This document shows positions 49,642 to 51,921 of a stretch of DNA of 64,000 nucleotides, piece by piece. This DNA is from Nitrosomonas sp. (GTDB taxonomy: Bacteria > Pseudomonadota > Gammaproteobacteria > Burkholderiales > Nitrosomonadaceae), in the NCBI GenBank assembly GCA_031316255.1, contig JALDQW010000001.1:1955485-2019484 (forward strand), given 5' to 3'. Every line of letters starts with the position of its first letter. Position 1 is the first letter of the stretch. A program made the position numbers and the translations under genes. Below the pieces are notes generated by a model. It saw only the letters and a program-made list of their open reading frames with translations. It was not told where the DNA came from and made no database searches.

Positions 49642-50241
49642 CTATATCTCGAAAACAATCATATCCGGTGATAGCTCGCTAAGCTGAATGCCGACAAGAT
49701 CAATCCAGAGATTAGATCCGAATTCAATTTTCAGACTTTCTTCACTTTGTTTGACTGCCGTTACAAACGGAACCAGTTTGTCAAGGCTGTCGATGCCTAT
49801 TGCCGCGGTATCGAAAAACAATCGGTCTTCTCCTGGTGTAAAGTCATTCACTCGAAAAAAACCCAGGTTATAAAAACCAAAGGTATCGTTCCCAAGACCT
49901 CCAGACAGCTGATCATGGCCGCCACCGGCTCGCAAGATGTCATCACCGGAACCACCAAATAATTTGTCAGTACCGCCTTGCCCGTCCAGATCGTCATTGC
50001 CCGAGTCGCCATCAATAATATCGTTTCCAGCGCCTCCTTTTAGGGTGTCGTTACCGTCATTACCTTCGAGTTCGTCATTACCGAAACTGGCTTCAATGAA
50101 ATTGTCCAGTCCATCGCCGATGTAAAGAAAGTCATCTTTACCGAATCCGCCCGAGCCGAATCCCTCAATTTCAATGCCATCGATAATTTCAACTATCCCT
50201 GATGAACTGACGTTCGGACGATTTATAATTTCTACAGTCAT
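49642..50241 (-). CDS. small RTX (haemolysin-type calcium-binding repeat) protein
   Basis: 199 residues from the ATG at 50241, which has a perfect GGAGG site 6 bases upstream. Residues about 35-120 hold tandem GGxGxDxx nonapeptide repeats (GNDELEGNDGNDTLKGGAG, GGSGDDILRAGG, GGLGNDTFGF) that bind calcium and form a beta-roll. There is no N-terminal signal peptide; the C-terminal 60 residues would carry a type I secretion signal. No enzyme domain is present. A type I secretion system is not seen in the window. It is divergent from the LicD fusion gene. Confidence 0.85.
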   Translation of the reverse strand: MTVEIINRPNVSSSGIVEIIDGIEIEGFGSGGFGKDDFLYIGDGLDNFIEASFGNDELEGNDGNDTLKGGAGNDIIDGDSGNDDLDGQGGTDKLFGGSGDDILRAGGGHDQLSGGLGNDTFGFYNLGFFRVNDFTPGEDRLFFDTAAIGIDSLDKLVPFVTAVKQSEESLKIEFGSNLWIDLVGIQLSELSPDMIVFEI

Positions 50242-50379
50242 ACTATGCCTCCAATACAAAAAATATGTTTAAAATTTTCCACCATAATTATCCATTGCAA
50301 TTTTATTCAATAATGCAAATAATAATGAGATTAATTCTCAATATTATCAAATTGAAATCAAAATTCAAGCTTTTTAATA

Positions 50380-51921
50380 ATGAATACAGATGAAAGTGAT
50401 GCTTTGCTGCAGGCAAAGCGGTACATTGTGAACGGCAATTTGACTCGAGCCGGGAATCAGCTCAATGCTTTGAAAAAAAAATTCCCGATGTCTGCTGATG
50501 TGGCTAGGCTCTGGTGTTCTTGGGCTATGCGTGTAAATCGTACATCGGAAGTGCCGGTCTATGCAAAAAAGATATATTCATTGGCCCAGAATGATGTGCA
50601 GAAAGCGCACTGGGCGCATTTATTGGCGACGGCATATTTTTTTCTGCTCGATCTGGAGTCATCCCGTGATTATTTTGACCGTGCGTTGAATCACTTAATG
50701 GCGTTTGCATGTTCCGGTAAAGCGCCTGCGGCGCGGGTAAATCGCAAAAAACAGGATGCCGGAAAGAATCTGTTTACTTCAGGGTATGCGGAACAATTAT
50801 TATGGTCGACCTGTACAATGCTTGCACAGCAGGATATACCGGCATTTCCGTTTGCCGGAACTCTACTGGGACTCGAGCGTGAAGGAAAACTGCTTGATTT
50901 CGACAAAGATATTGATATTGCAGTGTGGATGAACGCTTTTGACGCGTGTTGCCGGATACTGGAAAAAAATGGCTGGTCGCCAGTGCCAAAGCGTATTGTT
51001 TATCGGAACTACCGTGATTACGTTCATGACGAATCCGGAATAACACTTGATGTCTGTGGATTGGAACACCGGAACGACCAACTGATTGCCGGTGGTTTTT
51101 CTATACCGGAATATCCGGCTGAATATCAGCGCGTTTCGATTTTTCCGGCATTTGAATTGACGCAACGAAAGTCTGCGCTGGGCGAAATCTGGTATCCCAA
51201 GCGGCCGGAAAAGATTCTGACTGCGTTTTACGGTGACTGGCGTACGCCAAATCCGCTCTGGGATACGGTAATCTCGGCGCTGAATCTGGAAAAGTTTACG
51301 CTGCTGGTGCGCTGCTATGCGTATCATCGGCTTGTCAAGCACTGGTTATCCGGTGATCTGGTCAAAGCATGGAGTTATGCGCACCAAATCGCACTAAAAG
51401 ATCCGGATGACTTGCTGGCATTACGCAGCCGGCAATGGCTGGAGCGTATCATCATACGTACCGGACAGGACATGCCGGTATGGCCGCTGAACAGGCCCCA
51501 GCGGCGGATATATACGCGTATGGTGGCAGATTTGTTTCATGTTGGCCATATTAATTTTCTAAAAACCGCACGGTCTTTGGGCACACATCTGACCGTATGT
51601 GTAGTTCCGGATCAGCGTGTTCTGGAAAACAAGGGAAAGCTTCCGGTAATGAAGCAATCAGAACGTGTGGTTGCTGTCGCCGCCTGTAAATATGTGGATG
51701 CCGTGCTGACTGACAGCCCCGTTAATGCAACGGTGGAATTCATGCGGCTGCATGGATTTGATATCTATACATTTGCCTGCGCCAACGATAAAGAGCGTGC
51801 TGATAAGTATCAGCAATGCGCATTGCTTCCCGTGGAAATGGTGAGGGAGCTCGACTATACGTCCGGTATTTCTACAACGGAGATTGTTCAGCGTATTTTG
51901 GGGACATCCGGTGCAAAGTAG
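50380..51921 (+). CDS. LicD-type transferase fused to a phosphocholine/phosphoethanolamine-type cytidylyltransferase
   Basis: A 513-residue soluble protein with three parts. Residues 1-110 are helical and repeat-like (TPR-style, with LARLWCSW-like and AHLLATAYFFLLDLE helices). Residues about 130-330 are LicD-like: GTLLGLEREGKLLDFDKDID is the nucleotidyltransferase-fold signature with the metal Asp residues. Residues about 370-510 form a cytidylyltransferase: ADLFHVGHINFLKTAR carries the HxGH motif, and SGISTTEIVQRIL the RTxGISTT-like end. LicD proteins move phosphocholine or similar groups from CDP carriers to glycans, and the C-terminal part would make such a carrier. One protein may therefore both activate and transfer. 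Substrate not shown; no ribosome site is obvious. Confidence 0.8.
   Translation: MNTDESDALLQAKRYIVNGNLTRAGNQLNALKKKFPMSADVARLWCSWAMRVNRTSEVPVYAKKIYSLAQNDVQKAHWAHLLATAYFFLLDLESSRDYFDRALNHLMAFACSGKAPAARVNRKKQDAGKNLFTSGYAEQLLWSTCTMLAQQDIPAFPFAGTLLGLEREGKLLDFDKDIDIAVWMNAFDACCRILEKNGWSPVPKRIVYRNYRDYVHDESGITLDVCGLEHRNDQLIAGGFSIPEYPAEYQRVSIFPAFELTQRKSALGEIWYPKRPEKILTAFYGDWRTPNPLWDTVISALNLEKFTLLVRCYAYHRLVKHWLSGDLVKAWSYAHQIALKDPDDLLALRSRQWLERIIIRTGQDMPVWPLNRPQRRIYTRMVADLFHVGHINFLKTARSLGTHLTVCVVPDQRVLENKGKLPVMKQSERVVAVAACKYVDAVLTDSPVNATVEFMRLHGFDIYTFACANDKERADKYQQCALLPVEMVRELDYTSGISTTEIVQRILGTSGAK

What the first reader, a model, noticed from the sequence alone, without database searches (positions are those of the whole stretch)
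50380..51921. Single protein combining a LicD-type transferase and a CTP-dependent cytidylyltransferase
Seen: GTLLGLEREGKLLDFDKDID (LicD signature) and ADLFHVGHINF plus SGISTTEIVQ (cytidylyltransferase) in one reading frame, after a helical repeat-like N-terminus. Known: LicD proteins transfer phosphocholine-type groups from CDP-linked donors, and cytidylyltransferases make these donors. Inferred: a self-contained enzyme that activates and transfers choline phosphate, ethanolamine phosphate or a polyol phosphate onto a glycan. The fusion order and the N-terminal repeat region look unusual.
Basis: partly seen in the sequence, partly recalled or inferred. Interest (0 to 1): 0.6.

Follow-up and report, generated by a model that had tools for sequence, protein, structure and literature searches.

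The report
Self-charging LicD enzyme paired with RTX
This ammonia-oxidiser gene encodes one protein that probably makes its own CDP-activated phosphate donor and transfers the group onto a target, and because it always sits next to a small calcium-binding RTX protein gene, that secreted protein is its most likely target.

Summary
One 513-aa ORF (50380-51921, +) carries a TPR-like N-terminus, an FKRP/LicD-fold phosphotransferase domain and a PF01467 cytidylyltransferase (CT) domain. The TPR-LicD part is predicted at pLDDT 93 and its best structural match is FKRP; D175/D177/D179/D224 are invariant. The CT keeps HxGH and the lysine, but its substrate loop (GDDW/HDD elsewhere) is replaced by an invariant FACA-type loop, so phosphocholine and glycerol phosphate are doubtful substrates.

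The main new finding lies outside the given coordinates. The gene is in 75 of 85 same-genus (Nitrosomonas) genomes. In all 73 copies with enough flank it is divergently paired with a ~200-aa RTX protein gene, across at least five unrelated neighbourhoods. The ten genomes without the enzyme lack that RTX gene, and nine of them lack the PrtD-type type I secretion exporter. Relatives elsewhere pair TPR-LicD with a separate or fused CT; several sit beside flagellin or a large putative adhesin, once inside a type I secretion operon.

Best reading: a self-charging TPR-LicD transferase that phospho-decorates its RTX partner before export (confidence about 0.5; acceptor and donor inferred). The fusion itself is not unique: the same order occurs in at least 11 of 50 genomes of one gammaproteobacterial genus.

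The parts
49642..50241 (-). Partner gene: ~199-aa RTX (hemolysin-type Ca-binding nonapeptide) protein, ATG start at 50241 (ORF listing gives the longer TTG start 50259)
   Evidence: PF00353 E = 9.2e-29; Met at the ATG position invariant in 35 aligned partners; divergent neighbour in 73 of 73 informative enzyme copies
50242..50379 (.). Intergenic region between the two divergent genes, presumably holding both promoters
   Evidence: Position only; gap 8-460 bp in 35 relatives counted to the first possible start
50380..51921 (+). TPR-LicD-CT fusion gene, 513 aa
50380..50724 (+). Residues 1-115: TPR-like helical hairpins (proposed acceptor-binding part); the least conserved part between species (60% mean identity)
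   Evidence: TPR in relatives
50770..51279 (+). Residues 131-300: LicD/FKRP-type nucleotidyltransferase-fold phosphotransferase domain
   Evidence: model pLDDT 93, best PDB match FKRP; family alignment
50902..50916 (+). Residues 175-179 DKDID: metal/CDP-binding Asp triplet equivalent to FKRP D360/D362/D364
   Evidence: invariant D175, D177, D179; FKRP residues from PMC6965139
51049..51051 (+). Residue D224, proposed equivalent of FKRP D416
   Evidence: invariant in A1; position inferred from the family alignment
51280..51465 (+). Residues 301-362: conserved helical region following LicD
   Evidence: 78% mean pairwise identity; helices in model
51502..51897 (+). Residues 375-506: PF01467 cytidylyltransferase domain
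   Evidence: PF01467 E = 2.2e-12; closest solved structures human PCYT2 and CCTs by sequence and fold
51538..51549 (+). HVGH, residues 387-390: HxGH catalytic motif
   Evidence: invariant H387, G389, H390
51772..51798 (+). Residues 465-473 FACANDKER: lineage-specific loop in place of GDDW/HDD
   Evidence: F465 and A466 invariant in 35; every other partner CT compared keeps G/A-x-[DEN]-x
51856..51876 (+). YTSGIST, residues 493-499: CTP-binding signature with Tyr in place of Arg
   Evidence: Y493 and T494 invariant; Tyr, Lys or Glu at this place in other partner CTs

Best explanation
The protein is a self-charging phosphotransferase. Its C-terminal CT domain uses CTP to activate a small phosphorylated compound (identity unknown, probably not phosphocholine or glycerol 3-phosphate) as a CDP-linked donor. 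Its LicD/FKRP-fold domain transfers the phospho-group, releasing CMP. The N-terminal TPR-like domain recruits the acceptor, which is most likely the RTX protein encoded divergently next door, or a glycan carried by it, modified in the cytosol before type I export. The two invariant serines in front of the RTX repeats (S20 and S36 in the 205-aa ORF) are candidate sites. Shown: architecture, fold, conserved catalytic residues, purifying selection, obligate pairing and co-occurrence. Inferred: both activities, the donor, the acceptor and the site.
For: Fold and catalytic residues of both domains (FKRP residues PMC6965139). Pairing with the RTX gene: 73 of 73 informative copies; the 4 others lie at contig edges. 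Enzyme and RTX are the only two gene families shared by all 15 neighbourhoods compared, over at least five contexts. Ten genomes without the enzyme have no comparable RTX gene, best E not below 3e-9. PrtD-type T1SS exporter in 73 of 75 carriers against 1 of 10 non-carriers (Fisher p = 1.3e-9). Outside the genus, TPR-LicD plus CT sits next to a surface polypeptide: flagellin in L060, L062 and L171; a flagellar gene cluster in L168; a large Calx-beta/Big_9 protein in L169; a Big_13 protein followed by TolC-, ABC- and HlyD-type genes in L146. Precedents: FlmG uses its TPR domain to bring flagellin to its transferase (PMC7591256); Cps7C is a TPR plus FKRP-like CDP-glycerol phosphotransferase (PMC11666461).
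Against: No activity was measured. The CT has lost the GDDW/HDD loop seen in all the other partner CTs compared, so its activity and substrate are open. RTX pairing may partly reflect common descent, and the ten non-carriers may be one or two clades. The gammaproteobacterial fusions have no RTX neighbour, and some LicD/CT pairs lie in capsule-like or pse-type clusters (L063, L155, L156), so protein modification is not universal in the family. In G053, G060 and G061 an RTX homologue closer to the window's than the paired one lies elsewhere.
Confidence: 0.5

Rival explanations
1. The enzyme decorates a cell-surface glycan (LPS, capsule or exopolysaccharide), and the RTX protein is a separately acting neighbour.
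For: Characterised LicD, FKRP and Cps7C enzymes act on glycans (PMC10434233; PMC11666461). Some relatives sit in capsule-like clusters (L063, L155). The gammaproteobacterial fusions have no RTX neighbour.
Against: No glycan-synthesis gene is conserved beside it in the genus; the only invariant neighbour is the RTX gene.
Confidence: 0.25
2. The RTX protein is a functional partner rather than the acceptor, for example a secreted scaffold that displays or binds the glycan the enzyme modifies.
For: Strict pairing and co-loss fit any joint function; RTX proteins are secreted and surface-associated (PMC6891781).
Against: Flagellin and large surface proteins occupy the same position in other taxa, and a shared role as acceptor explains that more simply.
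Confidence: 0.13
3. The CT domain has lost its catalysis and serves as a nucleotide sensor or dimerisation module; the LicD domain uses a CDP-donor made elsewhere.
For: The GDDW/HDD loop and the usual Arg of RTxGIST are missing.
Against: CT is among the two most conserved parts (78% mean identity, Ka/Ks 0.03-0.15). HxGH, K418 and TxGIST are intact, and Tyr, Lys or Glu replaces Arg in other partner CTs.
Confidence: 0.12

Closest known systems
Cps7C of Actinobacillus pleuropneumoniae (TPR plus FKRP-like NTase domain, CDP-glycerol:glycerol phosphotransferase; PMC11666461)
   Same: N-terminal TPR followed by an FKRP-like domain with essential Asp residues; CDP-linked donor
   Different: No fused cytidylyltransferase; capsule acceptor; no RTX partner
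FKRP/FKTN with ISPD (ribitol-phosphate transferases and their CDP-ribitol synthase; PMC6965139, PMC4873967)
   Same: Same transferase fold (best PDB match) and Asp residues; transferase and donor-maker act as a pair
   Different: Eukaryotic, separate proteins; ISPD is from another cytidylyltransferase family
LicC/LicD phosphocholine system and Mycoplasma Mf1
   Same: LicD-type transfer from a CDP-linked donor made by a cytidylyltransferase
   Different: LicC is of another NTP-transferase family; choline-binding residues absent here; below family cut-offs
Human PCYT2 and CCT cytidylyltransferases (PDB 3elb, 3hl4, 4zcp)
   Same: CT fold, HxGH, KGK, TxGIST
   Different: Substrate subsite and Arg of the signature replaced; fused to LicD
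FlmG flagellin glycosyltransferase of Caulobacter (PMC7591256)
   Same: TPR domain recruiting a secreted protein to a C-terminal transferase (proposed analogy)
   Different: GT-B glycosyltransferase with pseudaminic acid; flagellin, not RTX

Membership tests
LicD family (PF04991) | Pfam gathering score | tested here: not met
   12 bits against 22.6 for the window protein; relatives L060, L062, L063 and L171 pass
LicD/FKRP nucleotidyltransferase-fold phosphotransferases | Fold and catalytic Asp residues | tested here: met
   best PDB match FKRP at E = 1.8e-4 (TM-score 0.33 over the whole query, domain-level match); D175/D177/D179/D224 invariant
LicD/FKRP nucleotidyltransferase-fold phosphotransferases | Transfer of a phospho-group from a CDP-linked donor | not testable with these tools
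   needs an enzyme assay
PF01467 cytidylyltransferase-like | Pfam gathering score and HxGH | tested here: met
   47.8 bits against 21; H387/G389/H390 invariant
Glycerol-3-phosphate cytidylyltransferase (TIGR01518, TagD) | Equivalog cut-off and GDDW loop | tested here: not met
   37.3 bits against 165.4; loop is FACA-x-[ED]-x-ER
CTP:phosphocholine cytidylyltransferase | Choline/phosphate subsite (D623, Y626, W692, H709 in PfCCT) and RTEG[IV]ST | tested here: not met
   R380, A383, V448, F465, Y493 at those places; mapping by alignment
Partner gene: RTX calcium-binding proteins (PF00353) | Nonapeptide repeats above Pfam cut-off | tested here: met
   99.5 bits against 23, four stretches
Partner gene: type I secretion substrate | C-terminal export signal and cognate exporter | tested here: inconclusive
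   C-terminal part resembles the SMc04171 family tail; genome has a PrtD-type exporter above cut-off but not next door; export not tested

The most novel reading that the evidence does not exclude
TPR-LicD proteins with their own CT form an unrecognised family of protein-modifying enzymes that attach CDP-activated phospho-groups to secreted proteins (RTX proteins in Nitrosomonas; flagellins and large surface proteins elsewhere). The Nitrosomonas version uses a donor not made by any characterised cytidylyltransferase.
Probability: 0.33. Interest if true: 0.8.

Novelty: new variant of a known kind. Interest (0 to 1): 0.58.

Why it matters
If true, it gives a two-gene, genetically simple system in which one enzyme makes its own CDP-linked donor and modifies a specific exported protein. 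That would add a phosphodiester-type modification to RTX proteins and suggest what unexplained LicD/cytidylyltransferase pairs beside flagellin and surface-protein genes do. It also flags a genus-wide trait of ammonia oxidisers. In the literature held, no paper mentions LicD, flagellin and cytidylyltransferase together, and the papers read describe no such fusion.

Tried and rejected
A genome-contig scan with the single protein found nothing because its patterns were species-specific; the alignment-based scan worked. I suspected that Tyr for Arg in the RTxGIST motif meant a dead CT; rejected as decisive because Tyr, Lys or Glu occurs at that place in other LicD-partner CTs. I considered the fusion unique to Nitrosomonas; rejected after finding the same order in a gammaproteobacterial genus. 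Whether the two fusions are one event or two could not be decided: the LicD tree joins them with unfused Ramlibacter and Oceanospirillum proteins (support 0.97), while the CT tree leaves Nitrosomonas unresolved. Plasmid records hold no full-length fusion. CDP-glycerate as donor (CpgD, PMC12275187) was considered; CpgD is from a different family, so it is only a precedent. The full-length model has low global confidence (pTM 0.54), so the interface between LicD and CT was not interpreted. One script stopped before listing the last neighbourhoods; its tally over all 15 loci was printed before that.

Full report
What is there. The ORF at 50380-51921 (+) encodes 513 aa. Pfam finds PF01467 at residues 384-505 (E = 2.2e-12) and only sub-threshold LicD; NCBIfam adds a Mf1-type LicD match at 139-189, E = 6.6e-6. 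A structure prediction of residues 1-365 with 32 relatives is confident (pLDDT 93, pTM 0.89): six N-terminal helices in TPR-like pairs, then a mixed alpha/beta domain whose best PDB match is FKRP, the human ribitol-phosphate transferase. FKRP needs D360, D362, D364 and D416 (PMC6965139); D175, D177, D179 and D224 stand at the corresponding places and are invariant in the orthologues. The CT half matches human PCYT2 and CCTs by sequence and by fold. In the full-length model the overall confidence is lower (pTM 0.54), so the arrangement of the two halves is unknown.

Conservation. Full-length orthologues (59-75% identical) are in 75 of 85 same-genus genomes; record titles name Nitrosomonas. All parts are under purifying selection (Ka/Ks about 0.02-0.22); CT and the helical region after LicD are the most conserved (78% mean identity), the TPR part the least (60%), as expected if the TPR part follows a varying acceptor (inference).

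The CT domain is unusual. HxGH, K418 and TxGIST are kept, but the residues that line the choline/phosphate site of Plasmodium CCT (PMC6060094) are replaced by other, mostly invariant residues (R380, A383, V448, F465), and the Arg of RTxGIST is Tyr in all 35. Tyr, Lys or Glu at that place is common among other LicD-partner CTs; the lost GDDW/HDD loop is not. I infer a changed phospho-substrate rather than a dead domain, but cannot prove it.

The partner. The gene on the other strand, 49642-50241, encodes a ~199-aa RTX protein (PF00353 E = 9.2e-29). In the first 35 loci examined every enzyme gene has this divergent neighbour. Counting all 77 enzyme copies in 75 genomes, 73 have it and the other four lie at contig ends where it could not be seen. 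Comparing 15 neighbourhoods, only these two families occur in all; the surroundings fall into at least five unrelated contexts. The ten genomes without the enzyme have no comparable RTX gene (best E not below 3e-9). The PrtD-type exporter, which serves RTX substrates in other bacteria (established knowledge), is present in 73 of 75 carriers and 1 of 10 non-carriers (p = 1.3e-9). Shared ancestry of the non-carriers weakens that p-value. Enzyme and RTX distances correlate (Mantel r = 0.66), which common descent alone could give. In the partner, the stretch before the repeats keeps two invariant serines, S20 and S36 in ORF numbering: candidate acceptor sites, hypothesis only.

The family elsewhere. 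LicD proteins of this kind are rare: 8 of 369 genomes of the class and 16 of 399 of the phylum, own genome included, at the thresholds used. Their genes lie next to a cytidylyltransferase gene: PF01467 type in L060, L063, L146, L155, L156, L159, L160, L170 and L171; IspD type in L062, L168 and L169 (Pfam-tested in L062 and L169) and, judged by sequence only, in L061, L145, L147 and L167. Several also adjoin a surface polypeptide: flagellin in L060, L062 and L171 (an Octadecabacter plasmid operon flagellin-CT-LicD); a flagellar cluster in L168; a large Calx-beta/Big_9 protein in L169; and in Oceanospirillum L146 a Big_13 protein, a TPR-sulfotransferase-TPR-LicD protein, CT, TolC-, ABC- and HlyD-type genes in a row. 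Others have no such neighbour, and L063 and L155 look capsular. The fused order TPR-LicD-CT recurs in a gammaproteobacterial genus: 14 of 50 genomes matched, and complete fused ORFs were confirmed in 11 neighbourhoods; 4 of these have a SapC-family gene next to the fusion and none an RTX gene within the four genes shown on either side. There the CT keeps the G-x-[EN]-W loop.

Interpretation. A donor-making domain fused to the domain that uses the donor, a TPR-like domain that in relatives recruits proteins or polymers (PMC7591256, PMC11666461), and a secreted protein as the invariant genomic partner together favour a self-charging enzyme that modifies the RTX protein before export. Architecture, fold, residues and linkage are shown; activities, donor, acceptor and site are inferred. 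I put about 0.75 on both domains being active and about 0.5 on the RTX protein being the acceptor. These are judgements, not computed values.

Novelty. Each part is a known kind and TPR plus FKRP-like domain is known from Cps7C. The CT fusion, the altered CT site and the obligate RTX pairing were not found in the literature held, which omits most subscription journals. I file it as a new variant of a known kind.

Noticed in passing
L166:8751-10277 and L184-L193: A second lineage of TPR-LicD-CT fusions in a gammaproteobacterial genus (14 of 50 genomes matched, 11 complete fused ORFs confirmed), with a more canonical CT loop and, in four loci, a SapC-family (S-layer-associated) gene directly downstream.
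   Followed up: partly
L171:6876-9735 (Octadecabacter arcticus plasmid pOA238_118): Flagellin, cytidylyltransferase and LicD genes in a row inside a flagellar cluster: a candidate phospho-modification system for flagellin.
   Followed up: partly
L146:2375-15964 (Oceanospirillum multiglobuliferum): A 1100-aa TPR-sulfotransferase-TPR-LicD protein and a CT gene lie between a Big_13-repeat protein gene and TolC-, ABC- and HlyD-type secretion genes.
   Followed up: partly
L169:7949-18241: TPR-LicD plus IspD-type CT directly upstream of a >2370-aa protein with DUF4347, Calx-beta and Big_9 domains and an N-terminal LEPRMMFDGA motif.
   Followed up: no
window 49642-50259: The RTX partner's likely start is the ATG at 50241, not the upstream TTG given by the longest-ORF rule.
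   Followed up: yes
G053, G060, G061: RTX homologues 74-78% identical to the window's lie on contigs where no enzyme copy was found, besides the more divergent paired copy, so the RTX gene may have unpaired paralogues.
   Followed up: no
G077:C114 and G069: Two enzyme/RTX cassettes in one genome: two equally scoring copies about 6 kb apart in G077, two diverged copies in G069.
   Followed up: no
G014-G017, G032, G033, G049, G072, G087: Nine same-genus genomes lack the PrtD-type exporter, the enzyme and the paired RTX gene together; this may be a joint loss.
   Followed up: partly
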